A DNA stretch of 64,000 nt, from NCBI GenBank assembly GCA_030431455.1, contig JAUIJE010000006.1, positions 62,001 to 126,000 on the forward strand, given 5' to 3'. The translations under genes and the position numbers were made by a program. This DNA comes from a bacterium. Its GTDB lineage: Bacteria > Myxococcota > UBA727 > JAUIJE01. Positions 25,230-40,156 of this stretch are shown here, one piece after another (within the stretch, counting starts at the first letter, position 1; each line of letters begins with the position of its first letter). The notes beneath the pieces were generated by a model. That model saw only the letters and a program-made list of their open reading frames with translations. It ran no database searches and had not been told where the DNA came from.

Positions 25230-25303
25230 TCTATGGTGTGCGCCGCAACTGATCTGAAGTCCGCACGGATCTTTAGAAACGGTTGCAGTCTGGGGGTCCC
25301 AAT

Positions 25304-28300
25304 ATGGTCCGTTCGCACGGGTTCGCCCGGGGGGCATTCGCCCTCCTTTGCCTTGGTTTGTCTTCGGAACGCGCCGGCGCGGACTGTACAGAGGACTCCT
25401 ACCCGAACCCGAGCTCGTACTTCGAGTTCGAGGATGTCTCGAGCGGGTTCATTGAGGACACGGTGGGGACCCACATCGGCGTCCTGTACGGCAGCCCGGG
25501 CACGGACACCGGCATCGTCGGCGACGCTGTCGCCTGGGATGGCGTCAACGACTACGCGTTGCTGGATGAGTACGCTGAGTTGGAACAGGACATGACGTTC
25601 GCGACGTGGGTTCGCTACCACTCGCCGAACAACACCGGCGCCCTCATCTCGAAGTTCATGAGCCCCGCATACGCCTGGCAACTGGGGACCTATTCAGCGC
25701 CTCGGTACTTGCAGGCCTACGCCAAGCAAGAGGGCGCGGGTGGCATGAAATTCGTCTTCGGTCCAAACACGGATGGGATGTTCGATGTCTGGCACCACGT
25801 GGCGATGACGTACGACGGTCAGGTGCTTGCGCTCTATTTTGACGGAAGCCTCGTCGGATCGACGTCCTGGGCATCCTCGGAGCCGCTGCTGATCTCAGAC
25901 CTTTTGGTGCGCCTCGGGGCGCGGTACGGCGGTGGGACCCCCTTTGTCCACGCCGACATGGACGAGACGGCGCTGTGGAACGACGCTCTGAGCGCGGCCC
26001 AGCTGTCCGACGTCTATCTACGCGGAATCGGTGCCGCGAAGCTGTTTGAGGCTTCGTCTTGCCCGGCAACCCCAAGCGCCGATCTGTCGAATTTTGTCGT
26101 CGACAACGATGTCCACCTCCCGGCGGACGGCACGTCAACCTACACCGCGGCGGTCACCCTAAAACTTCGGAACGGACAACCCGCGGCGGGTGTGACCGTC
26201 GGGCTCGAGGTCACAGGGTCCGGCAACATCGTGTCAAATCCAGTGCAGACGGACGCAAACGGCGAAGCAACCCTGACCTTGGCGACTACTGTGGCCGAGA
26301 CAAAGACGCTCTCGATCGTCGCAGATCCGAACTGGGTGCCTATGTTGCTGGATGTGACGAGGGAGGTCACCTTTCAATCCCCCACGTGCACGGGCTACTT
26401 TCCTCCCCCCATCGCCTACTATCCCATGGACGACGTGAGCACCGGCACGGTCTCGGACGCAGTTGGCGTTCATCCTGGCATTGTCTACGGACCGCAAGCC
26501 ACCTCGGCAGGTCTCGTTGGGAACGCGCTCGATACCCACATCGGTGGCGATTGGGTTGAGTTGGACGAACTGAGTGAGGTCGGCGAAGCAATCACGTTTG
26601 GACTCTGGCTCTTCTACGAGTCCAACACCACCGGTGAGCTTGTTTCGAAGTGGAACAACAATCCCTACGACTCCTACGCCATGACCGTACGCGCAAGTTC
26701 GTCCTCGCGAAATGTTGCTGTTTGGGTTTCTGAAACAGGTGACTTCGATGGGAATCTGAGCCAGAACGGTACGTGGATCTCAGGACCCAACTTGGTGCCC
26801 TTGATAGGCGAGTGGCACCACCACGTCTACGTATACGACGGACAGACGCTCTCGCAGTATGTGGATGGCGCTCACACCTACAGTCGATCGTTTGCCAGCC
26901 CAGGGGATATTTGGACTTCCACGCTGCCTGTTCGCATCGGCCGCACCCACGCACCGACGACCAACTACATCGTCGATGGCCTCATCGACGAGGTCATCTT
27001 CTTCGACGAAGCGCTCGATGACGACCAGGTCGCCGCGCTCTACCACCGCGGCTATGCAGGGTTGACCGCGTACGACGTGAGCGGTTGCTTGCCAGAGGTG
27101 TCGGACACCAACAGCACGGTGGTCGCCTCGCCGACGATCGATATCTTGGCAGACGGCGAGGACGCATCGACGGTCACGGTGACTGTAAAGGACGATGGGG
27201 GTACGCCGCTCCCCGGTCGCTACGTGACTCTCTTTGCCGTTTCGGGGACAGACCCAGTCGTGACGCAACCGCTGGGGCCCACCGACGCGAACGGCGAAGT
27301 CATTGGTTTCCTCGGCTCGGACGTCGCGGAGAACGTCGAGATCGGCGCGATCGTTGACCCTGGGCCGGAGCAGGTGGTGCTCACAGACACCGCGACCGTG
27401 GCGTTCCTCGATCCGGGACCGCAGTGGTTCTATTCGCTGTGGCAGTTCCCCACGCTCGGCGGACAGCCTCTCCAGATTCAGGAGCGGAATGGCAACATTG
27501 GCGTCTTCGCAGGCAGTGGGGCACTCGACAATCTCGTGGAGGCACCTTCCGCGACCACGATCGAGAACTGGGTCCAGTCTTCGGCCGCCCTGCAACAGTG
27601 GCCCTACCTCGCGGGCCAGGTGCACACCGTCGGAGAGCTCACCGGCGGCACCGGCGCCATCTTTGAAAACCCGCTGGTGTTCTATGGCGAAGAGGTGAAC
27701 CCGGGAGCTTTGGCCGGTGGGAACTCGTCGATGTTTGGGCTGGCTCTGGGCCAATACTACCTCTCCGCGGCAGACACGGTGATCATGGGTTCGAGCGCAT
27801 GTTCGGGACCCGGGTGTTCGAGCAACTGTGTTGTGTTGTCGAACGCGACGATCTGTGTCGGCATGTCAGGGGGTGTTCCACCCCAGCCGAGCTGCGACTG
27901 TGGACCCAGTGCCATTGATCAATGTGGCACTCCTGGAACACCGGCCCCCGGCGAACCGCCGATTCCCGAACCTGTGTGCACGCCAGGTGAACCGTCCTGT
28001 GCTGTCGGCGACATCACGTACACGGACTTCGGCGAAGACGTGGACGGGGGTTCGACGTGCATGACCATTTGCCCGTTCGCAGATTGCGACCCCAGCGCGC
28101 CCGGTCCAGGTGGAGGCAACGGCGGGGGCACCCCGAGCGTGGGAATCGAGGCGCCGGGGCTGTGCATCGCGGAAAGCGGCCCGCCCCAGGTTGACCGGCA
28201 CTGCCAACAAGTGGCGGGGGGCAACAACTGCCCAGGCATGTGCTGGGGGCAAGAGACCGGTGACTGCTACTTCCTGGGAGACGATCCAACCGCAGGTCCT

Positions 28301-31300
28301 TATGAGGAGCCTGACTGTTATGTCGCCGAGTGCAACTACGGCGCCGGCGCGCCGGGTACATGCTGCAACCCCGCGTTCGACAAGATCGACGACTTCATCG
28401 AGGAGAAGGCGGAGCAGCTGCTCGCAAATGACGAGGTCTTTGGTGAGGAGCTCGAGCCGCAAGAGCAGTTCCTCGTCTGTGCCCGCAGTTCAGACTTTCA
28501 GGGGGGCGTGTGCGCGAAGGGCAACTGCGATCAGGGCGATGTGTGTCCTTGGGGCCTCATCGGTGCTGACATTGGCGATATCACCGATCCCGCCAACTCG
28601 GGTTTGCGATGCAAAGCGGGCCAGGGCGACGACGACATCTGCGCGGTATGTGGCGAGATCACGGCCTGGGGATGCGTCCCGACCACCGCGCTGCGCGACT
28701 CGCTGGTGGCGCGACCCGTCCTCACCGCGAATGAGGAGAATACAAAGGAGCCGGGCACCGAAGCTGAACAAGCGACTGAACCCCTCGGCGAGGCGGCGGA
28801 GGATCCCATCACCCTCGCCAGCGGAGAACTCGTTTTCTCGGCGACCGATCTTGCCTTCGAGGGCATCGGGCTCGACTTCGCGTTTTCACGTAACTACCGC
28901 TCGGGCGGCGCGGAGCACGGGATGTTCGGTCCTGGATTCCATCACTCCTTAGAAGAGCGCATCGAGCTTGTCGGGGACAAATACAACCGCCACAGTGCAC
29001 CCGCGTACTGTAACAGTGCATACCCGATCATTCGGTGCCTCTATCACTACGACGCGAACGGAGCACGAAGGCTCTACGTCTTCGACTACGAATCCGGTGT
29101 CTACTCAGGCCCGCCCGGGTCGTTCTCCACCATTCGTTTGGATGTCAAAGACGCGAGCATCGCCGAGCAGACCGGGCGCTTCGTGATGCTTCAGCCCGGC
29201 GGAACCACCCGCGAGTACGACGTTCTTGGCCACTTGCGCAAAGTTCGCGATGCCTACGGCAATGCCATCGAACTCGGGTACCGCATTCGAACCCTCGATG
29301 AAGTGAAGCGTGAGGGGAACGGCAATGGCTACAACGGAACACTCTATGACAACACCGAGATCGAAAAGTACGGTGTCTACTTTCCCGGGGCGGTGCAGCC
29401 TGACCCGAACGACGAGGGCCAGCTCCACACCAACACGACGTCTCGCAACGCCTTCTTCAACCAGGTTGAGCTGACCACCATCACCGACACCTACGGCCGG
29501 GTATTCACGGTCGAGTACAACACCTTTTCCGAGGCGGGGAACCTGGGCGCGAACCCCGCGGACCGTGCCGAAGGCGACAGTGCGACCCGTCGCCGGCGTC
29601 CCACCGCCATCACCTTCCGGGGCGAAACGGTGGTGAGCTACGACTACACCTGGTTCGCCCTCACCGACGACGCCTACCTCACAAAGATCACCCGCACGGG
29701 GTTCACCGATGGCGGAACGCACAGCGCCGAAACCCTCACCACGCACTACGAGTTCAACTTTGATGTCGTGACCGACCACTTCGTCTGGGAAACCGCCACC
29801 GACGAAGCGCCGTCGGCCACCACCGCGTTTGGCCAGGCCATCGCCACGGCGTTGCAGACAGTTCACCAAGACGTCAAATATTGCGGCCGTCGCATGATGC
29901 CCGACCCAGAGCAGGAGCTCGAGGCGGGCATGGACCCCGCGAGCGGGTGCAACTCACGGCCGTATTCGTACACGCAACTGCCGATCTCCGAAGGGGACAC
30001 CCTCGGCACGCGGCTGCGCAAGATTCTCGCGGACAATATCGTGCGTGTGTACACCGGGGACACCATCGCCGACCCGTCTCGACCGGACGTCGAGACATAT
30101 TTCGTCCCGAACCCCCTCTCCCCGGACTTCGACCGCGCGGTGAAGCAACGCTACGGCGCTGCCCCCTTGGCCGGCTCGCCGCTCAACACCACCGAGTCGG
30201 TGGGCTCGGACACGGTGTTCGTCTGGAAGAGCCAGCTTCCCGAAGCGAGCCTTGTACAAACGATATCCGGCCAGCCGGATGCGATGTTCTCGTCATCGAC
30301 CTTGTTCCCCACGCAGGAGGCGTCGTACTCGGGCGCACTCACCGCCGGCACCGGGTATCGCGATCCCGACACGCTCGAAATCATCACCGATCCCGACTTC
30401 TCGACCATCCAGCCCGTGGTGGTACCCAACAACGATCAAAACGGGCTTTGGCACAGCGCGGAGTTCAGCGTTGTCATCCCGCAACAGATTCTGAACGCCG
30501 TTCCCGTCGAGGGAGCCCTCACGGATGACAACGAACCCATGACGGACTTCTGTCGCCACCTGGACTCCATCGGACGGTTCCCGAAGTTCAAGCTGCGCGA
30601 CCCTGCCTTGAAGCGCAACGACACACCCACCAGCCTGGCGTCCGCACCGTTGCCCTCTATCCGGCGGTCTGAGTACTCGTGTGCTGCCATCGCCGCGCGG
30701 CACAACCGGGATGCGTTCGTCAACGAGAACGTTCGCTACTTTGATGACGACACCCTCGACGATCGGTATCCCGACCAGCGGCCCGAGGACGGCCTCCGCC
30801 GCATCGGTTACGAGTACGATCTTGCCCGTGTCTGCCGGTGGGTCAAGAACACCAACCGCGAAGGGGAAGAACAGTATTTCGGTCTGAACTTCTCGGGACA
30901 GACCATCGTGCACGCCAAGCCGGCCGCGGATGAATCCGGCGACTGGTCGATCACCAAGCGCGTATTCAACGCCGACGGCCTGCTCGTAAAAGAGACCCGA
31001 CCCGACGGGGGGGGCGTCGAAATCGAATACGCGATGCAGAACCCCGACGGCACCGATTTTGAGGCCGCGCCCGGCGGTATCGTCCTCTACCGGGCAAACC
31101 CCGTGAAGTTGACCGAATACGTTGCCGACACCGTGGCCAACCCGCACCTCGAGGACGCGACCGCGTACGCGGCCTCCGGCTCCGAGACCACGATTTCACA
31201 ACGCGAATGGAACTTTGTCTACGAGGCCCTCTTCCAGCAGCTCGGCTGGCTGGTGCCGCCCGACGGACAAGGCATCGCCTACTTCGCCTACCAGTATCAA

Positions 31301-34300
31301 GGCTTGCCCGAACCCACGCTCACACAGATGACGCCCGGCGAGTTCAACAATGGCATGCACGCAGGCATCCGCAACCTGGTGGCCAGCGGCGTCCCCGTCA
31401 CGTTCCTGCAGAACTTGCTCACCGCCCCCCAGGGGAACCACTTTTTCGAGTTCTACACCAACACGTTCGACGGCGGGGGCTACACCCTCAACGCGGGCAA
31501 CGGGCTGAGCGTGGAGTTCGTCAGCGACGTGCCCACCGGCAACGGCGCCGCCGTGGTCGATGTCGGGACCCGCTACATCCGCGACACAAAAGGTCGTGTG
31601 CGTCGCCAAGCGTCAATCAAAGACTGGGCCGACGACGTCTACGACACTGACGAGATCGTCTATGGCTACTACGACGACCTCGCGAGCGCGGAAGCTGCTT
31701 CGTTTGGCTCGTCGACGGTATGCGCCGATGACGAACCCAGCGGCATTGACGCCTCCACCATCCGTGGGCCGCTCGCCCGGGTGGTGACCAAGCAAACCCC
31801 CGGGGCGTCGCTGTGCAGCAATTCCGCATCTCACGTGACGTACGCGTACGATGCTCTCGGCGGCGTGCGTTTGGCCCGGGCCAACGGCGACCCCGACACC
31901 GACCAGGTCACCGAGCGCAACAGTCTGGGCCGCATCGTCGAGCGCAGCGACGCCTACGGCTATGCGGCACAGTACGTGTACAACGACCGATCGGAGATCG
32001 TGCAAGAGAGCCACCGCGATGGCTCCGCCTACGCCAGCCCCGATCAAGTCATCGTGCACGCCTACGGACTCGGTGACGTCAAATACGGCTCGTGCCAAGA
32101 GAGTGTCAGTGGCGCGTGCACCACATTCCCGACCCTGGCCGCGAATGTGGTCGCGGCGGTCCGCAATGGCACCGCGATGCCGGCGTTCCCCGCCGGGGCC
32201 CAGTGGTCAGTCCGGGTGCCCGATCTCGACGACCGCTTCCTCGCCGTGGTGGATTCCGGCGACGGCTACCGCAAGGTCACGCGCAACGCGACCGGACTGG
32301 TCAGCAGCAGCGACGACTGGGACTCGGCCACTGCGCCGAGCGCGCCTCTCTACCACCGCGAGTACGAATACGACCGAGACGGTCGGCTGTTGCGCACGCG
32401 GCTCGGCGATGTGGCCTCCCCCGACCCGTTCGTGACCTGGCACAAATACGACGCGCTCGGTCGCCGGGTCGCGACCCAGACCAAGGCGTTGGACGCGACA
32501 TTGGTGTACAGCGACGGCCACGGGCTGGTGCAGCGGGTCAAGTACGACGGCAAAGACCGCGTCACCGGGGCGTATACCTTTGGCGACGACGGCGACGGCA
32601 CGCGCCGGGTGTTTTCCTTCATGCGCCAGGAGCTCAATAGCATCGGTGAGCCCCTGTATGTGCACACCTTGGCCCAGCCGACGATGCCGACATCGATCAC
32701 CGGTACTTTCCCCACGGGGCCCGCGGGCGCGGATGTGTGGGCCACCGAGCGCTTCGAATACGATCACGTCATGCGCCCGGTGGAATACGAAGCCGAAGGC
32801 ATCGATCCCACCACCGCGGTGTACGACGGCTTTGGCCTCTCTATTGTGACAAGCCCCACGGTGCAGCGCTCCATCACCCGCTTCCCCCTCGACCGCGAGG
32901 TGATCACCGCCGTGCGGCAGTTCGGCAGTGATGTGAGCGTGGGGGACAAAGACGCGACCTACATCGATCACTACGACGGCGCGGGCCGGCTCACACTACA
33001 CGAGAGCATCGAGAACGAAATCCTCGGCTCCACCGGGAGCCTGACCACCGCCTACACGTACGATTCGTTTGGCCAAGCCGTGCGCACCCAGGGCGCGGAC
33101 AAACGCGCGGTCGACCGCCTCTTCGACGGGGCCGGGCGCATGGTGCAAATGGACGAACTCGATCGCACGTTCTTGTCCCACCGCACCACCAACTATGCCT
33201 ACGACCTCGCCGGCCGCCTGGCCCAGACGGTGACCTCGTCGGGACAAACCACCGATTGGACGTTCGACGCGGTCGGCCGGACCACGACCAAACAGGTCAC
33301 GTCGACCTCGGGCCTCGTCCCCGAAGGGTTCGAGTCCATCTACAACTACGACGACATCGGCCGCACCACCACCCACCTCGAGAGCAAACGGGTGTCGCCC
33401 CTCGACCACGTGACCTACAGCTACAGCTACGCCCAAGGGGAAACGGCCCCGGACACCATGAGCGTCGACGCTGCCTTGGCCAAAAGCTGGGTCCGCGACG
33501 ACCTCGGGCGCATCGTCGAAGCCACTGACGAAAATCTCCTGTTGCTCTACGCCGACAACACCGAGCTGCCGAGCGAAGCGCTCACCACATTCCTCGAATA
33601 CGACAGCATGGGCCGCCTGCTCGGCGAGGAGACGGCCAAGGGCACGGGCCTGAGCGAGGCGCTGGGCCGCATGGACTACGCCTACGGCGATGACTTCTTG
33701 GGCCGGAGCCAACGCACCTTTGACCCCGACCAGCTCGATGCCACCGCCGGATTTGACACCGACTTTTTCTACGACCCGGCCGGCAACCTCGACGAGATTC
33801 AGCGGCACCGACAGGGTTACGGCACCCGGCTTGCGGTGTCGCTCTCGCACCGCGGCGGCCTCTGGACCAAAGCCGACATCGGCCCCGTTGGGGGAAGCGC
33901 CCAATACACCCAGACCAAAGAGCGCGATGGGTTTGGCTGGGTGCGCAAGTCGGGCATGGGCCTCACCGGCAGTAGCCAGATGGCCCGCGAGGTCGCGTTG
34001 CTCGGCCCCACCGGCCGCGTGATGGCGAGTTTGCGCACGGGAGGCTTCTTTGGCTCGTCGGCCAAAGGCTACGAATACGACGCGCTCCGCCGACTGAGCC
34101 GGCATACCTTTTTGGACGACAGCACGCCGAACGTCGCCCCGACCGAAGCGCAGTTCGACAACGAGCGGGCCACCGCGCTGCTCGACGAAGAGAACATCTT
34201 CGCCCTCAGCAGCTTCATCGAGCCCCCCGATGTCGACGTCGCCACCAGCTTCAACCTCAACGACAACCTGCAGAGCGCCGCGGTCGACGAATACAACCGC

Positions 34301-36085
34301 ACCTTCGCCGCGAGCTTCAACACCGCCGCTGCAGGTTCGCCGCCGAGCGCGGTCAACGGCGGGACGGTTGTCCTCGATGACCTACACCGCATCTCCAGCG
34401 ACGGCGCCGCCGACTACACCCACGATGCCCTCGACCGTTTCCGGTCAATCTCTGTCGGCTCTGCCCTCGAGATGTCGGTGCTCTACGACGGCCTCGGCCG
34501 GCGCAAGATGGAGTGGCGCCGCACCGGCGACACCAGCGCCGACTACGAGCTCGCGGTGCTCCACTACGACGGGCCCAACGTGGTCGAGGAGACGGACTTC
34601 GAGGCCAGCACCCCGACGATCTTGACCCAGACCACCCACGCCCCGGGCATCGATGCGCCGGTGCTGTTCAACGCCACCTATGACGATGGCAACAGCTATG
34701 TGACCTACGCGCTTGGCACCAATGTGCGCGGAGACGTCATCGCCGCGGCGAGCTACGACGGCAACACCCTTCTCGAAAATGCCCAGCTGAGCCCCTGGGG
34801 TGAGCGCCACTTCAAAGACAAGAACGGCTCGTGTCTGGAGGGGACCGAGGCCAGTGGCACGACATCGTTGCCAGACAGCGCGTGCGCCGATCTTGTCGCC
34901 GGTCAGGGCGGCTACACCCCGGTGCTTCGGCGGTTCGGCATCGCCGGTGGCCGCGCGCACCCGCGCACCAAGCTGGTGGACATGCGCAACCGGGTGTACG
35001 CGCCGCATCTGAAAGGCTTCCTGGCCCGCGACCCGCTCGGTTCAGTGGATAGCCACGGTTTGTGGAACTACGTGGCGAACGACCCTGTGAACATGAGGGA
35101 CCCGTGGGGGCTGGACAGCGGGGCGACGGCCGATGACCCCGAACCAATGAACTTCGGTGATGACCTACCCGGTGGTGAGACAAGCGACATGAGAGGCGAG
35201 TGTGGTCGTGGCACGGCGGGTGCCAGTTGTGGTGGTAGCAAGTATGGCCCTCTCTTCGCATCCGAGGCTGCGAAGTTCCGTCGGTTCAACGAACAGAGTG
35301 AGGACCATGCGGGCCCGACCGGCCCCACGGGAGTGTGCTCCAGTTCGCCTGACGGCACGTGCTACGGCGACCCGGCTGTGGAACCGGATCTTCTTGGCGC
35401 ATTCGGAAGGGGCCTCAAACGAAACGTTCCGACTCTGGACGAAGTCACGGAGGGTTTGGCGCAGCAATATGGCTGCGCAACGTGCCGGGCGCTAGAGCAG
35501 GCCAAGAAGCCAAACGGCAACGACCGTTCAGCGGGTGAAATCGCTGATGAGATTGTGGAGGACGTCCTTCAAAACAATCCGATCGCACAACAGAACAACA
35601 ACGCCGCGGAAATCGCCGACGGCTGCGGAGGAGGTCTCGGAGAGGACTGTATGGAGGCGCTGGGCAACGAGACCGGGCAGTTCATCGCCATTCTCGTTGG
35701 GATTATGATGGGGACCGCGGTCGGAAAGATTGCGGGCGGCGGTACCGCAGGAAAAGGTGGTAAGCGAAGCAAGAATCGCGTGCCTGACAAGGTTCCTGGG
35801 CGCCCAAATCCCGAGCAGCAAGCCTTGATAGACATGGCGAAGAAGGACTCCAAGCGAGTTCCTCAGGGGAAAGGCCCGGTTTCAGCTGGTGACGCCGACG
35901 CATACGTCGAGCTAGGAAACCAAGCAGGCGTCCCGGTCCGGGCAAAACCGAACGACCTATCAGGTGCCCACGGGTATGGTCCGGTCCCCGCCGGGCCGGG
36001 AGCCGAGCACATACATGTCAACGGCGAACACATCCCTGTACCCGGAGGGTATACCCCACCCTCAGGAGGTAACATAATCAGATGA
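25304..36085 (+). CDS. Giant Sec-exported RHS/YD-repeat polymorphic toxin
   Basis: About 3593 residues. A signal peptide (MVRSHGFARGAFALLCLGL) precedes a LamG-like domain (about 32-250), an Ig-like Big-1 domain (256-359), a second LamG (364-596) and a second Big-1 (598-706), then a unique and Cys-rich part. DUF6531-like sequence (ITLASGELVFSATDLAFEG) begins at about 1167, followed by some 2000 residues of YD repeats. The RHS core includes DMRNRVYAPHLKGFLARD and ends NDPVNMRDPWGL near 3270, after which self-cleavage is expected. The final 323 residues are a distinct tip with a hydrophobic segment (FIAILVGIMMGTAVGKIAGG) and a His-rich end (HGYG, EHIHVNGEHIPV) reminiscent of small nuclease-like toxin tips. 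The shell is known to encapsulate the toxin, and its activity here is inference. ATG at 25304 is preferred over an in-frame TTG at 25283 because it starts the signal peptide. The stop overlaps the next gene. Confidence 0.88.
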   Translation: MVRSHGFARGAFALLCLGLSSERAGADCTEDSYPNPSSYFEFEDVSSGFIEDTVGTHIGVLYGSPGTDTGIVGDAVAWDGVNDYALLDEYAELEQDMTFATWVRYHSPNNTGALISKFMSPAYAWQLGTYSAPRYLQAYAKQEGAGGMKFVFGPNTDGMFDVWHHVAMTYDGQVLALYFDGSLVGSTSWASSEPLLISDLLVRLGARYGGGTPFVHADMDETALWNDALSAAQLSDVYLRGIGAAKLFEASSCPATPSADLSNFVVDNDVHLPADGTSTYTAAVTLKLRNGQPAAGVTVGLEVTGSGNIVSNPVQTDANGEATLTLATTVAETKTLSIVADPNWVPMLLDVTREVTFQSPTCTGYFPPPIAYYPMDDVSTGTVSDAVGVHPGIVYGPQATSAGLVGNALDTHIGGDWVELDELSEVGEAITFGLWLFYESNTTGELVSKWNNNPYDSYAMTVRASSSSRNVAVWVSETGDFDGNLSQNGTWISGPNLVPLIGEWHHHVYVYDGQTLSQYVDGAHTYSRSFASPGDIWTSTLPVRIGRTHAPTTNYIVDGLIDEVIFFDEALDDDQVAALYHRGYAGLTAYDVSGCLPEVSDTNSTVVASPTIDILADGEDASTVTVTVKDDGGTPLPGRYVTLFAVSGTDPVVTQPLGPTDANGEVIGFLGSDVAENVEIGAIVDPGPEQVVLTDTATVAFLDPGPQWFYSLWQFPTLGGQPLQIQERNGNIGVFAGSGALDNLVEAPSATTIENWVQSSAALQQWPYLAGQVHTVGELTGGTGAIFENPLVFYGEEVNPGALAGGNSSMFGLALGQYYLSAADTVIMGSSACSGPGCSSNCVVLSNATICVGMSGGVPPQPSCDCGPSAIDQCGTPGTPAPGEPPIPEPVCTPGEPSCAVGDITYTDFGEDVDGGSTCMTICPFADCDPSAPGPGGGNGGGTPSVGIEAPGLCIAESGPPQVDRHCQQVAGGNNCPGMCWGQETGDCYFLGDDPTAGPYEEPDCYVAECNYGAGAPGTCCNPAFDKIDDFIEEKAEQLLANDEVFGEELEPQEQFLVCARSSDFQGGVCAKGNCDQGDVCPWGLIGADIGDITDPANSGLRCKAGQGDDDICAVCGEITAWGCVPTTALRDSLVARPVLTANEENTKEPGTEAEQATEPLGEAAEDPITLASGELVFSATDLAFEGIGLDFAFSRNYRSGGAEHGMFGPGFHHSLEERIELVGDKYNRHSAPAYCNSAYPIIRCLYHYDANGARRLYVFDYESGVYSGPPGSFSTIRLDVKDASIAEQTGRFVMLQPGGTTREYDVLGHLRKVRDAYGNAIELGYRIRTLDEVKREGNGNGYNGTLYDNTEIEKYGVYFPGAVQPDPNDEGQLHTNTTSRNAFFNQVELTTITDTYGRVFTVEYNTFSEAGNLGANPADRAEGDSATRRRRPTAITFRGETVVSYDYTWFALTDDAYLTKITRTGFTDGGTHSAETLTTHYEFNFDVVTDHFVWETATDEAPSATTAFGQAIATALQTVHQDVKYCGRRMMPDPEQELEAGMDPASGCNSRPYSYTQLPISEGDTLGTRLRKILADNIVRVYTGDTIADPSRPDVETYFVPNPLSPDFDRAVKQRYGAAPLAGSPLNTTESVGSDTVFVWKSQLPEASLVQTISGQPDAMFSSSTLFPTQEASYSGALTAGTGYRDPDTLEIITDPDFSTIQPVVVPNNDQNGLWHSAEFSVVIPQQILNAVPVEGALTDDNEPMTDFCRHLDSIGRFPKFKLRDPALKRNDTPTSLASAPLPSIRRSEYSCAAIAARHNRDAFVNENVRYFDDDTLDDRYPDQRPEDGLRRIGYEYDLARVCRWVKNTNREGEEQYFGLNFSGQTIVHAKPAADESGDWSITKRVFNADGLLVKETRPDGGGVEIEYAMQNPDGTDFEAAPGGIVLYRANPVKLTEYVADTVANPHLEDATAYAASGSETTISQREWNFVYEALFQQLGWLVPPDGQGIAYFAYQYQGLPEPTLTQMTPGEFNNGMHAGIRNLVASGVPVTFLQNLLTAPQGNHFFEFYTNTFDGGGYTLNAGNGLSVEFVSDVPTGNGAAVVDVGTRYIRDTKGRVRRQASIKDWADDVYDTDEIVYGYYDDLASAEAASFGSSTVCADDEPSGIDASTIRGPLARVVTKQTPGASLCSNSASHVTYAYDALGGVRLARANGDPDTDQVTERNSLGRIVERSDAYGYAAQYVYNDRSEIVQESHRDGSAYASPDQVIVHAYGLGDVKYGSCQESVSGACTTFPTLAANVVAAVRNGTAMPAFPAGAQWSVRVPDLDDRFLAVVDSGDGYRKVTRNATGLVSSSDDWDSATAPSAPLYHREYEYDRDGRLLRTRLGDVASPDPFVTWHKYDALGRRVATQTKALDATLVYSDGHGLVQRVKYDGKDRVTGAYTFGDDGDGTRRVFSFMRQELNSIGEPLYVHTLAQPTMPTSITGTFPTGPAGADVWATERFEYDHVMRPVEYEAEGIDPTTAVYDGFGLSIVTSPTVQRSITRFPLDREVITAVRQFGSDVSVGDKDATYIDHYDGAGRLTLHESIENEILGSTGSLTTAYTYDSFGQAVRTQGADKRAVDRLFDGAGRMVQMDELDRTFLSHRTTNYAYDLAGRLAQTVTSSGQTTDWTFDAVGRTTTKQVTSTSGLVPEGFESIYNYDDIGRTTTHLESKRVSPLDHVTYSYSYAQGETAPDTMSVDAALAKSWVRDDLGRIVEATDENLLLLYADNTELPSEALTTFLEYDSMGRLLGEETAKGTGLSEALGRMDYAYGDDFLGRSQRTFDPDQLDATAGFDTDFFYDPAGNLDEIQRHRQGYGTRLAVSLSHRGGLWTKADIGPVGGSAQYTQTKERDGFGWVRKSGMGLTGSSQMAREVALLGPTGRVMASLRTGGFFGSSAKGYEYDALRRLSRHTFLDDSTPNVAPTEAQFDNERATALLDEENIFALSSFIEPPDVDVATSFNLNDNLQSAAVDEYNRTFAASFNTAAAGSPPSAVNGGTVVLDDLHRISSDGAADYTHDALDRFRSISVGSALEMSVLYDGLGRRKMEWRRTGDTSADYELAVLHYDGPNVVEETDFEASTPTILTQTTHAPGIDAPVLFNATYDDGNSYVTYALGTNVRGDVIAAASYDGNTLLENAQLSPWGERHFKDKNGSCLEGTEASGTTSLPDSACADLVAGQGGYTPVLRRFGIAGGRAHPRTKLVDMRNRVYAPHLKGFLARDPLGSVDSHGLWNYVANDPVNMRDPWGLDSGATADDPEPMNFGDDLPGGETSDMRGECGRGTAGASCGGSKYGPLFASEAAKFRRFNEQSEDHAGPTGPTGVCSSSPDGTCYGDPAVEPDLLGAFGRGLKRNVPTLDEVTEGLAQQYGCATCRALEQAKKPNGNDRSAGEIADEIVEDVLQNNPIAQQNNNAAEIADGCGGGLGEDCMEALGNETGQFIAILVGIMMGTAVGKIAGGGTAGKGGKRSKNRVPDKVPGRPNPEQQALIDMAKKDSKRVPQGKGPVSAGDADAYVELGNQAGVPVRAKPNDLSGAHGYGPVPAGPGAEHIHVNGEHIPVPGGYTPPSGGNIIR

Positions 36086-36579
36086 CCACAAGCTGGTATC
36101 TCGTGCGTCTAAGTTGGCCGTCCACGTCAGCACTCTGGCCGACCTACTGCGGACTCGGAGGCGACGTGTGGCCACTTGGCGAGCATGGATCAGCCCAAGC
36201 GATTGCAGTTCACGACGGGCTTATGTCGAGTCGGAGATACGTCCGAGTGGGTGACTACGAGGAGGCGGTTTGTATCGACCGGGACTTGGCCATAGGCTAC
36301 GCAGCTACGGCGACGGCGTTGGGGATAGCCGCGTCAGTGATTGAGTGCACGGAATCCCCTGACGCTTTTTGCGAGGGCTTCGACATAGGCAATCCAACGG
36401 GCGGCTATTCGCTGATTGAGTCTGAAATCCTGGTCCGTGATGATGCGCACCGAACACTCAATAGTCTAGGGCTCTTCCCGTCCCGGGGCGCTGCAGAACA
36501 GTACCTGGTGTTCCGCCGTGACGAAAACCTCGAGGAGGCAGATGACCTCTCAATTGTGGGAATTTCAAGAGTCGAGTAG
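36082..36579 (+). CDS. Putative immunity protein to the RHS toxin tip
   Basis: A 165-residue acidic soluble protein beginning MTTSWYLVRLSWPS. Its ATG overlaps the rhs stop in ATGA, and an AGGAGG lies about 12 bases upstream inside rhs. No family is recognised. A short hydrophobic Ala-rich segment (AIGYAATATALGIAASV) may be a buried helix. The position directly after a polymorphic toxin, the small size, the coupling and the lower GC shared with the toxin tip are the usual features of cognate immunity genes. Function is inferred from context only. The 73 bases after it contain the Shine-Dalgarno of the next gene. Confidence 0.65.
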   Translation: MTTSWYLVRLSWPSTSALWPTYCGLGGDVWPLGEHGSAQAIAVHDGLMSSRRYVRVGDYEEAVCIDRDLAIGYAATATALGIAASVIECTESPDAFCEGFDIGNPTGGYSLIESEILVRDDAHRTLNSLGLFPSRGAAEQYLVFRRDENLEEADDLSIVGISRVE

Positions 36580-36652
36580 CTGAACCGGACGTTTCGCTCG
36601 CTGCAGATTGTATCTTCGAAGCCGCCGTCGGCAGCAAAACCAACGAGGATCA

Positions 36653-37639
36653 GTGACCAAAGCGGACCACATCAAAGCCCTCATCCGCAGCCACGCCGAT
36701 GGCGACGATGAGCGCTTCTACGCCATCGCGATGCAGGTCGCGGCCAACGCGGCCCGGGCGGGCAAGACCAACTTCGCCCAGGAGCTGCGGGCGTTGGTGG
36801 ATGCGGTGAAACCGGCGCAGCGCCGGCCCGCGCGCGGGCCTGGCCCCGTGCCCCTCGCGCGCCCGCGGGGCGACTTGGCGGCCATTCTGACCGCTGGGTA
36901 CCCAGATGTGCGCCTGCACGACATGGCGCTGGAGCCGGAGCTGGCGGCGCGGCTGCACCGCGTGCTGCACGAGCAGCGCAAGCGCACCACGCTCGAACAG
37001 CATGGCCTCACCCCGATGCGCAAGCTGCTGCTCGTCGGCCCGCCCGGAACCGGCAAGACCATGACCGCGGCTGCGCTCGCGGGTGAGCTGCAGGTGCCGC
37101 TGTTCACCATTCAGCTCGATGGGCTGATCACCAAGTTCCTCGGGGAGACCGCGGCCAAGCTGCGCCTCGTCTTCGAAGCCATGGCCGAGACCCGCGGGGT
37201 CTACCTGTTCGACGAGTTCGACGCGCTCGGGGGCGAGCGCGGCCATCGACAAGACGTGGGCGAAATCCGCCGGGTGCTGAACTCGTTTTTGCAGTTCTTG
37301 GAGATGGACCGCTCAGACAGTCTCATTGTGGGTGCGACCAATCACGTGGCGTTGCTCGACCAAGCGCTGTTTCGCCGCTTCGACGCGGTCATCGCCTACG
37401 CGCCGCCCACCGATGAGGTCGCGGCCCGGTTGATGAAAGACCGGCTCGCGCTCCTCGACAGCCACGGCGTGGACTTCTCCGCCGCGGTGAAGGCGGCCTC
37501 TGGTCTCAGCCACGCGGAGATCGTGCGGGCCTGTGAACAAGCGGCCAAAGACGCGCTGCTCGACGACACCACCCGCATCTCAACCGACGGGCTCCTGCGG
37601 GCCTTGGCCGAGCGCCACACCCCCGCGAGGGCGGGATAG
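36653..37639 (+). CDS. ietA: AAA+ ATPase, IetA-like (antitoxin/defence ATPase)
   Basis: A 328-residue AAA+ ATPase starting at GTG 36653 with CGAGGA upstream. An N-terminal helical region with a Pro/Arg linker (about 60-75) precedes the ATPase. Walker A is GPPGTGKT (129-136), Walker B is YLFDEFDA (Asp187, Glu188), sensor 1 is in IVGATNH and the arginine finger in FRRFD. The next gene, 9 bases downstream, encodes a subtilisin-like protease. An ATPase of this size paired with such a protease is the architecture of IetA/IetS, described on the Ti plasmid as a stability (toxin-antitoxin) pair with IetA as antitoxin, and later reported as the anti-phage system ietAS. Membership is inferred from sizes, motifs and order. 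A generic FtsH/Cdc48-like ATPase is the alternative. Confidence 0.8.
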   Translation: MTKADHIKALIRSHADGDDERFYAIAMQVAANAARAGKTNFAQELRALVDAVKPAQRRPARGPGPVPLARPRGDLAAILTAGYPDVRLHDMALEPELAARLHRVLHEQRKRTTLEQHGLTPMRKLLLVGPPGTGKTMTAAALAGELQVPLFTIQLDGLITKFLGETAAKLRLVFEAMAETRGVYLFDEFDALGGERGHRQDVGEIRRVLNSFLQFLEMDRSDSLIVGATNHVALLDQALFRRFDAVIAYAPPTDEVAARLMKDRLALLDSHGVDFSAAVKAASGLSHAEIVRACEQAAKDALLDDTTRISTDGLLRALAERHTPARAG

Positions 37640-37648
37640 GCCCACCGC

Positions 37649-40156
37649 GTGCCAGGCCCGCGCGACCTGCCGCACATCCGGGTGCCCCCCGAACGATCTC
37701 GAACCGCCCAGGGCTATCGTGGCAAGCCAGGCCGTGGGTCGGGCAAACCGGGCCCGCCCCGCGGCGGCCGGCGCGCCCAGGGCGAGAGCCTCAAGCGCGC
37801 ATTCGAGGCGATGCGGCGGTTGCGCGCGCAACGCCAAGCACCCGCGGAGATCGAAGCCGCGGTCGGCGGCATCTACGTGACCGTGGATTCGCATGCCGAC
37901 ATCGAACTCAAGATCGAGAGCATGGCGCCGCAGCGGAAAAAGGACCCCCGGGAGCGGCCCGAGGTGGTGCGCGCCACCCGACGGCCGAAGGACCTCGGCG
38001 CGGGCAGTACCCAGCGCGCGGTTTTGTTTGTGCCCGACGGCCACATCGACACGTTCTTCGAACAGCTCGAGAAATACACCGGTGAGGTCGAGCGCGGTGC
38101 GGACACCTACGACCGGGTGGCCGCGCTCGCCCACGGAGTGATTGAGCACCTCTGGTCAGATGACCCCGCGCTCTTCCCGCAGTCGCCAGATGAGGTGCGG
38201 TGGTGGGAGGTGTGGCTCCGGCGCGTGGACGACGGCGGGCTGAAACGTTTTCAGCAGTTCGCGGCGCAGAAGGGATTTGACCTCGGGCCCCGCGTGCTCG
38301 TGTTCGCGGAGAGGATTGTGGTTCTTGCCCACACCAGCGCCGCCGTGCTCGGCGAAATGCTGCAGCAAAGTGGCGACATCGCCGAGTTGCAGGCGCCTCG
38401 CGATGGTTGTGTGTTCCTCGCTGAGCTGCCCGCGTTTGAGCAGGCGGAGTGGGCCAAGGCATTGGCGGCCCAGGTCGTCGCCCCGGGGACCGACGCGCCC
38501 GCGGTGTGTCTGCTCGACACCGGCACCACAAGAGCCCACCCGTTGCTGCAACCGGCGCTGCGGCCCGAAGACCTCCACACCGTCAACGCGCGGTGGGGTA
38601 CCGATGACAAGCACGGCCACGGCACCTTGATGTCGGGCCTGGCCATCTACGGGGACCTCGGCCCGGTGATGCAACAGACCGGCGCGGTCGAACCGTGGCA
38701 TCGATTGGAATCGGTCAAGCTTCTGCCCCGCAACGGGGCCAATGCACCTGTACTCTATGCCGCGTTGACCGCCGACGCGGTGGCGCGACCGGAGATCGAG
38801 GCGCCGCACCGTCGCCGGGTGTACGCCATGGCGGTCACCAGCGGTGATGGCCGCGACCATGGCGAGCCGACCTCCTGGTCGGCGGCAGTCGATGCCCTCG
38901 CCGCGGGCTTTGGCGTCGACGCGGACCCGGCCGGCTTGGTGTACCTCGACGAGGAGGCGCAACGTACGCCGCGGCTTTTTGTCGTGTCGGCCGGCAATGT
39001 GGACCCGGCCGCCCTGCAGACCAACCATCTCGACGTCAGCGACCTGGCGCCCGTCCAGGACCCTGCTCACGCGTGGAATGTGCTCACGGTCGGTGCATAT
39101 ACCGAACGTATCAGCATCACCGACCCCGATTTCAGCACCTACCAACCGGTCACCGCCAAAGGTGACCTCTCGCCGTGGAGCAGCACCGGCGTGCAGTTCC
39201 CCCCGCAATGGCCCAACAAGCCGGACGTGGTCATGGAAGGCGGCAATGTCGCTGTCGACCCCGGCGGCGTCATCGACACCCCCGGCGATCTGCAGGTGCT
39301 CACCACCGAACGAGGCCTCTCGCCCCTCGGCCTCGCCGCGGGAACGTCGGCCGCCACCGCACAGGTCGCCGCCATGGCCGCGGACCTGGCCGCGCTCTAT
39401 CCCGACGCCAGCCCCGAGTTGCTCCGCGCGCTGCTCGTTCATTCTGCGCGCTGGACCCCGCCGATGACGCAAGCGCTGGGCGAGGCTCGCCTTCTCGCCG
39501 ACCGCTGCAACCTGCTGCGTCGCTACGGCCACGGCGTGCCCGACCTCGAGCGCGCCGCCCGCAGCGGCCGCGACGCATTGGTGCTCACCGTCGAGGACAC
39601 GATTCGGCCCTTCGAATCCGGCAAGATGCGCGAGATGCACTTTCACGCCCTGCCGTGGCCCGCCGAGGCTCTTTTGGCCCTCGGCGAAACCGAGGTCACG
39701 GTGCGGGTCACCCTGTCACATTTCATCATGCCGAACCCCGGACGACGGAGCTGGCAAAAGCGCCACCGCTACCAATCACACGGCCTGCGCTTCGACCTGC
39801 GGCTGCCCACCGAAACCCAAGCCGCGTTCGAACAACGGCTCAACCACGCCGCGCGCGACGAGGCGTACGAACAGAGCGCAAGTGGAGCCGGGCGCTGGTT
39901 TTTCGGCGAAGCCGTCCGGCACCGTGGATCGCTGCATTCCGACATCTTGCGCGCCACCGCCGCCGACGTCGCCGCGTGTGGTGCCATCGGTGTCTTTCCC
40001 GTGTCCGGTTGGTGGTACGAACAGCCCAAACGCGACCGCAGCGCCGACGGCGTGCGCTACGCGCTGGTGGTGTCGATCGAAACCGACGCGATCGACGTCG
40101 ACCTCTACACCCCGGTGCAGCTCCAGCTCGATGTGCCGGTCGCGATCGAAACCTAG
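37649..40156 (+). CDS. ietS: Subtilisin-like serine protease, IetS-like
   Basis: An 835-residue S8-family protease. The catalytic Asp290 is in CLLDTGT, His324 in KHGHGTLMSGL and Ser567 in AAGTSAATAQ, so the triad is complete. About 280 residues precede the protease domain: a basic Pro/Gly/Arg-rich start, then an alpha/beta region that may recognise targets or the ATPase. A beta-rich C-terminal part (about 640-835) follows. No signal peptide is seen, so it should act in the cytoplasm, unlike ordinary secreted subtilases. This fits IetS, the toxin or effector of the ietAS pair, restrained by the neighbouring AAA+ ATPase. GTG at 37649, 9 bases after the ATPase stop, is the start. Confidence 0.82.
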   Translation: MPGPRDLPHIRVPPERSRTAQGYRGKPGRGSGKPGPPRGGRRAQGESLKRAFEAMRRLRAQRQAPAEIEAAVGGIYVTVDSHADIELKIESMAPQRKKDPRERPEVVRATRRPKDLGAGSTQRAVLFVPDGHIDTFFEQLEKYTGEVERGADTYDRVAALAHGVIEHLWSDDPALFPQSPDEVRWWEVWLRRVDDGGLKRFQQFAAQKGFDLGPRVLVFAERIVVLAHTSAAVLGEMLQQSGDIAELQAPRDGCVFLAELPAFEQAEWAKALAAQVVAPGTDAPAVCLLDTGTTRAHPLLQPALRPEDLHTVNARWGTDDKHGHGTLMSGLAIYGDLGPVMQQTGAVEPWHRLESVKLLPRNGANAPVLYAALTADAVARPEIEAPHRRRVYAMAVTSGDGRDHGEPTSWSAAVDALAAGFGVDADPAGLVYLDEEAQRTPRLFVVSAGNVDPAALQTNHLDVSDLAPVQDPAHAWNVLTVGAYTERISITDPDFSTYQPVTAKGDLSPWSSTGVQFPPQWPNKPDVVMEGGNVAVDPGGVIDTPGDLQVLTTERGLSPLGLAAGTSAATAQVAAMAADLAALYPDASPELLRALLVHSARWTPPMTQALGEARLLADRCNLLRRYGHGVPDLERAARSGRDALVLTVEDTIRPFESGKMREMHFHALPWPAEALLALGETEVTVRVTLSHFIMPNPGRRSWQKRHRYQSHGLRFDLRLPTETQAAFEQRLNHAARDEAYEQSASGAGRWFFGEAVRHRGSLHSDILRATAADVAACGAIGVFPVSGWWYEQPKRDRSADGVRYALVVSIETDAIDVDLYTPVQLQLDVPVAIET

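What the first reader, a model, noticed from the sequence alone, without database searches (positions are those of the whole stretch)
35114..36579. Unassigned RHS toxin tip and coupled immunity candidate
After the RHS core (ends near 35113) there is a unique 323-residue tip with a hydrophobic segment and a His-rich end (HGYG, EHIHVNGEHIPV). A 165-residue gene overlaps its stop. The tip recalls toxin-37-like polymorphic toxin ends, but I cannot confirm this. The immunity protein matches no family I know.
Basis: partly seen in the sequence, partly recalled or inferred. Interest (0 to 1): 0.65.

Follow-up and report, generated by a model that had tools for sequence, protein, structure and literature searches.

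The report
Unnamed RHS toxin tip with immunity gene
A giant bacterial surface protein ends in a small swapped-in domain that very probably poisons rival bacteria and is followed at once by its likely antidote gene; the domain belongs to a widespread toxin family that the main family databases have not named.

Summary
The RHS core ends at residue 3277 (35113), a 323-residue tip follows, and a 165-codon gene starts inside the tip's stop (ATGA) behind a perfect Shine-Dalgarno. GC3 drops from 0.83 to 0.62-0.68 at the core/tip border and recovers to 0.87 after the 165-aa gene, so tip and gene look like one foreign cassette. The toxin-37 (Ntox37) reading fails, and so does Ntox30. Instead, the last ~80 residues belong to an RHS-tip family found here in nine places (Rhizobium, Methylocystis, Leptospira, Gemmatimonadota, Planctomycetes, Zetaproteobacteria, Deltaproteobacteria), with no match in Pfam, NCBIfam or the PDB. 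A relative's fold is predicted confidently (pLDDT 94, ααβββ) and matches no solved fold. Lys, Arg, HxH and His are invariant, which suggests a small nuclease, probably an RNase (inference). The downstream gene is the third immunity family (here ImmC) seen behind this tip: kin to the gene behind the Methylocystis tip through an intermediate, which lies in one polyimmunity array with the other two families, ImmA and ImmB. Toxicity and protection are untested.

The parts
25283..35113 (+). [quoted passage not shown]
35114..35806 (+). Pre-toxin linker of the tip
   Evidence: GC3 step at its start
35681..35737 (+). Hydrophobic Gly-rich segment FIAILVGIMMGTAVGKIAG; six of the eight other members also have a hydrophobic stretch before the toxin domain
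35807..36043 (+). Toxin domain of the unnamed family (profile region). Low-confidence predicted elements: alpha1 35810-35854, alpha2 35885-35926, beta1 35936-35947, beta2 36002-36019, beta3 36026-36052
   Evidence: profile; fold
35840..36031 (+). Candidate active residues: Lys 35840-35842, Arg 35939-35941, loop His 35969-35971, His 36008-36010, His 36014-36016, His 36029-36031
   Evidence: invariant K, R, HxH, H in 9 of 9; coordinates
36064..36070 (+). Shine-Dalgarno AGGAGGT inside the last tip codons
36082..36579 (+). Immunity candidate, 165 aa, ImmC family; ATGA overlap with the tip's stop

Best explanation
The tip and the 165-aa gene are one horizontally exchanged toxin-immunity cassette on a Sec-exported RHS polymorphic toxin. 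The RHS shell carries the tip; autoproteolysis after DPWGL (35113) would free it; the hydrophobic segment may help it cross the target's inner membrane; and the last ~80 residues act in the cytoplasm as a small enzyme of an unnamed alpha-alpha-beta-beta-beta family whose invariant Lys, Arg, HxH and His form the active site. The likeliest activity is an RNase that needs no metal (my estimate 35%), next a metal-dependent nuclease (20%). The downstream protein binds the toxin in the producing cell and blocks it. Shown by computation: cassette borders, translational coupling signals, family membership of the tip, kinship of the immunity gene, predicted fold of a relative. Inferred: toxicity, target, cleavage, translocation, protection. 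The confidence below is for the toxin-immunity cassette reading, not for the RNase step.
For: The core/tip border at 35113 coincides with the autoprotease motif pair and a GC3 step. A profile built without the window finds the window tip at 33 bits versus 8 for the best of 2000 shuffles. All nine members are ends of RHS-type proteins in unrelated lineages, each followed by a small gene. Downstream genes fall into three families: ImmA (4 loci), ImmB (3), ImmC (Methylocystis L012 and the window). Among 72,556 plasmids, ImmA-like and ImmB-like genes were found only in plasmids that carry this tip, in the Rhizobium and Leptospira loci beside it. Contig G017:C187 holds ImmA, two ImmB and an ImmC relative in one array behind a HINT-type tip. 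The window protein aligns to that ImmC at z = 8.9 (0 of 5000 shuffles), as does L012's at z = 17. The fold model of the L020 tip has pLDDT 94.2, pTM 0.78, with the invariant residues on helix 1 and the three strands.
Against: The window tip is among the most divergent of the nine: it lacks the GPExHP motif that seven members share (L012 also lacks it) and carries insertions; its own model is poor (pLDDT 60). No sequence or fold match gives a catalytic precedent, so the RNase step rests on residue chemistry alone. The direct window-L012 immunity match is weak (88 of 5000 shuffles reach it), and a profile of the two relatives puts the window protein only slightly above shuffles (9.1 versus 6.8 bits). 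ImmC-like genes also occur behind other toxins, so pairing with this toxin is not exclusive.
Confidence: 0.72

Rival explanations
1. Same cassette, but the HxH/His/loop-His cluster binds a metal ion and the toxin is a metal-dependent nuclease or other metalloenzyme.
For: Three invariant His on adjacent strands plus a loop His after the Arg in all nine members. His-based metal DNase tips are common (e.g. Tde5, PMC13392607).
Against: No HNH or beta-beta-alpha-metal arrangement (predicted order is alpha-alpha-beta-beta-beta); no Pfam HNH or REase hit; the acidic residue of GPExH is missing in the window and L012.
Confidence: 0.2
2. The tip kills at the membrane: the hydrophobic segment forms the lesion and the C-terminal domain is a carrier.
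For: Hydrophobic 19-mer in the window tip and in six of the other members.
Against: L011 and L012 have the domain almost directly after the core without such a segment, while the polar ~80-residue domain is what is conserved.
Confidence: 0.08
3. The window tip is a decayed or non-toxic end: a displaced tip that has lost GPExHP, kept with a harmless downstream gene.
For: Loss of the GPExHP motif and insertions compared with seven members.
Against: Open frame, intact coupling and SD, all K/R/HxH/H residues kept, and the immunity candidate also intact. L012 lacks the same motif and is also paired with ImmC.
Confidence: 0.12
4. The 165-aa gene is not the immunity gene but an unrelated downstream gene.
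For: No direct test; weak one-to-one similarity to L012's gene.
Against: ATGA overlap with SD, shared foreign composition, ImmC kin behind a related tip and in immunity arrays.
Confidence: 0.1

Closest known systems
RHS polymorphic toxin-immunity cassettes (PMC3482391; PMC8636562)
   Same: RHS core, DPLG/DPWGL end motif, unique tip, overlapping small gene, cassette-like foreign composition
   Different: Tip family and immunity family are unnamed; the N-terminus has an export signal with LamG/Big_1 rather than PAAR or WXG parts
Ntox37 (PF15535)
   Same: C-terminal RHS-type toxin domain with conserved His
   Different: No sequence, profile or motif match; described as all-beta with E, [KR], Hx[DH] (PMC3482391), while this family is predicted alpha-alpha-beta-beta-beta
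Ntox30 (PF15532)
   Same: Listed as a predicted RNase with two conserved His (PMC3482391); ends in HIP, as this family does
   Different: Motif order differs (RxH, then about 60 residues, then HIP, versus HxHVGPVxHIPV); no Pfam hit; hhalign probability 0.3% against one member
[quoted passage not shown]
   Same: Helical N-terminus followed by an antiparallel sheet; His/Lys/Arg chemistry
   Different: Three predicted strands instead of a four-stranded meander; no Foldseek match to any BECR structure
Tde5 with two unrelated immunity proteins (PMC13392607)
   Same: One toxin associated with more than one unrelated immunity fold
   Different: There both immunities sit in one locus; here different loci carry ImmA, ImmB or ImmC

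Membership tests
RHS polymorphic toxin with exchangeable tip | RHS core followed by a unique C-terminal tip | tested here: met
   TIGR03696 to residue 3277, DUF6531, YD repeat
RHS polymorphic toxin with exchangeable tip | Autoprotease DPxG motif pair before the tip | tested here: met
   RDPLGS, 18 residues, DPWGL
RHS polymorphic toxin with exchangeable tip | Tip and immunity gene form a displaced cassette | tested here: met
   GC3 0.83 -> 0.62-0.68 -> 0.87
RHS polymorphic toxin with exchangeable tip | Tip toxic and neutralised by the downstream protein | not testable with these tools
   needs expression in a laboratory strain
Unnamed RHS tip family (profile A4) | Profile match above background | tested here: met
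   33.4 bits versus 8.3 best shuffle, window left out of the model
Unnamed RHS tip family (profile A4) | Invariant K, R, HxH, HxPV | tested here: met
Unnamed RHS tip family (profile A4) | GPExHP motif (present in 7 of 9 members, so not defining for all; L010 has GPExHE) | tested here: not met
   window has AKPNDLSGAHGYG; L012 lacks it too
Ntox37 PF15535 | Profile match; E, [KR], Hx[DH] | tested here: not met
Ntox30 PF15532 | Profile match; RxH, R, THIP | tested here: not met
   (hhalign against one member only)
BECR-fold RNase | N-terminal helix plus four-stranded meander | tested here: inconclusive
   relative's model has two helices and three strands; no Foldseek match, but small domains are matched poorly
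ImmC immunity family (named here) | Homology to the gene behind the L012 tip and to array genes | tested here: met
   z = 8.9 to the G017 member, which has z = 17 to L012; direct window-L012 match not significant

The most novel reading that the evidence does not exclude
The tip domain defines a new small toxin enzyme family with a fold not yet solved, spread over at least five phyla and countered by three unrelated immunity families, so that toxin subtype (GPExH or not) goes with the immunity family carried.
Probability: 0.4. Interest if true: 0.6.

Novelty: new variant of a known kind. Interest (0 to 1): 0.45.

Why it matters
It gives a name-worthy toxin family with a confidently predicted ~70-residue fold, clear candidate catalytic residues and three candidate antidote families, all small enough for immediate expression and structure work. 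It would also show one toxin family countered by unrelated immunity folds, a case reported as rare (PMC13392607).

Tried and rejected
Ntox37 and Ntox30 (no profile match). Plasmid hits H11/H12 to the window tip and phylum hits L003-L006: other proteins or frames, chance. A first regex scan of RHS loci failed and was redone. Direct window-L012 immunity similarity alone was judged not significant until the G017 intermediate was found. L7/L12 hits in the PDB scan are helix similarity only. Viral-contig scans found no relatives; the phage-genome scan with the L002 tip found none. Motif letters were not found in the paper library.

Full report
Observation. The ORF 25283..36085 (3600 aa) and the ORF 36082..36579 (165 aa) overlap by ATGA. 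The RHS core model ends at residue 3277, i.e. 35113, and the two DP[LW]G motifs of RHS autoproteases stand just before it (RDPLGS, 18 residues, DPWGL; motif as in PMC8636562). The tip has 323 residues. A perfect AGGAGGT lies 11 nt before the second gene's ATG, inside the last tip codons.

Cassette. GC3 in 60-codon windows is 0.80-0.93 over the last 1.3 kb of the core, 0.60-0.68 throughout the tip, 0.58-0.67 in the 165-aa gene, and 0.87 in the following IetA-like gene. The step falls at the core/tip border. This is what exchange of a tip-immunity cassette would leave, although single windows elsewhere in the RHS protein also fall as low as 0.58.

Not toxin 37. Neither the tip nor any of eight relatives hits PF15535. 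True PF15535 members from the same phylum look entirely different. PF15532 (Ntox30), whose THIP motif recalled HIPV, was tested in the same way and fails.

The real family. A relatives search with the last 100 residues found one convincing RHS tip (L002 = L018, 47% identity). From it, plasmid, phylum and genome-collection searches gave L010 (Leptospira plasmid), L011 (Rhizobium jaguaris), L012 (Methylocystis iwaonis), L017, L019 (Gemmatimonadota), L020 (Planctomycetaceae) and L021 (Zetaproteobacteria). Nine members align with invariant K, R, HxH, H, P, V. A profile built from the eight others scores the window tip at 33.4 bits; the best of 2000 shuffled tips reaches 8.3. The family has no model in Pfam or NCBIfam and no sequence relative in the PDB; the window tip also has none in PHROGs.

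Fold. The window tip alone is modelled poorly (pLDDT 60; alpha-alpha-beta-beta-beta). With L020 first in the same set, the model is confident (pLDDT 94.2, pTM 0.78): helices 5-20 and 25-38, strands 42-46, 58-61, 64-69, with K15 on helix 1, R43 on strand 1, H58/H60 on strand 2 and H66 on strand 3. Foldseek finds no significant match in the PDB or among viral models; for 70 residues this is weak evidence of a new fold. Seven members carry RGPExH after strand 1; the window and L012 do not, but each has a His in that loop.

Immunity genes. Downstream genes fall into three unrelated families: ImmA (L011, L018, L019, L020), ImmB (L010, L017, L021), ImmC (L012, window). Pfam has none of them. In the plasmid collection, ImmA-like and ImmB-like genes occur only in plasmids that carry this tip, in the Rhizobium and Leptospira loci beside it. 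The window protein's direct match to L012's is not significant (88 of 5000 shuffles), but a profile of the two finds an ORF at G017:C187:2530-3105 that matches the window protein at z = 8.9 and L012's at z = 17, no shuffle of 5000 reaching either. That contig is an immunity array behind a HINT-type tip and also contains ImmA and two ImmB genes. A further ImmC relative sits in an immunity array behind another polymorphic toxin in G013. The window gene is therefore best read as an immunity gene. That ImmC goes with the tips lacking GPExH rests on two loci only.

Mechanism. Export: MVRSHGFARGAFALLCLGLSSERAGA looks like a Sec signal (inference from sequence), and LamG/Big_1 domains suggest surface display. 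Release after DPWGL, uptake with help of the hydrophobic segment, and cytoplasmic nucleic-acid cleavage are inferred. Metal-independent RNase is my first choice because small domains with conserved His/Lys/Arg and no conserved acidic metal-binding set are typical of such toxins (PMC3482391); its probability is about 0.35.

Limits. Member counts are lower bounds (one strict genome-collection scan, no full protein database). A name for this family may exist in sources not held here. No toxicity, target or protection has been shown.

Noticed in passing
window 36608-40156: AAA ATPase and subtilase pair directly downstream matches the IetAS anti-phage defence system in PADLOC (228 and 135 bits).
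   Followed up: partly
L074 (G017:C187:1-9754): Polyimmunity array behind a HINT-type tip, with ImmA, two ImmB and an ImmC relative but no tip of this family.
   Followed up: partly
L078 (G013:C24:10500-17500): Immunity array behind another polymorphic toxin end: duplicated zinc-ribbon-like gene and an ImmC relative.
   Followed up: no
L010: The same tip family and ImmB are carried on several Leptospira interrogans/kirschneri plasmids, most from human blood isolates.
   Followed up: no
G000 contigs C8, C16, C18 (L028, L029, L030, L032): The window's genome has three further RHS core matches above the cut-off and one weak match; a tip was read for only one of the three (L028) and it differs.
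   Followed up: no
window 25283-28700: RHS N-terminus carries two LamG and two Big_1 domains, an unusual adhesin-like delivery part.
   Followed up: no
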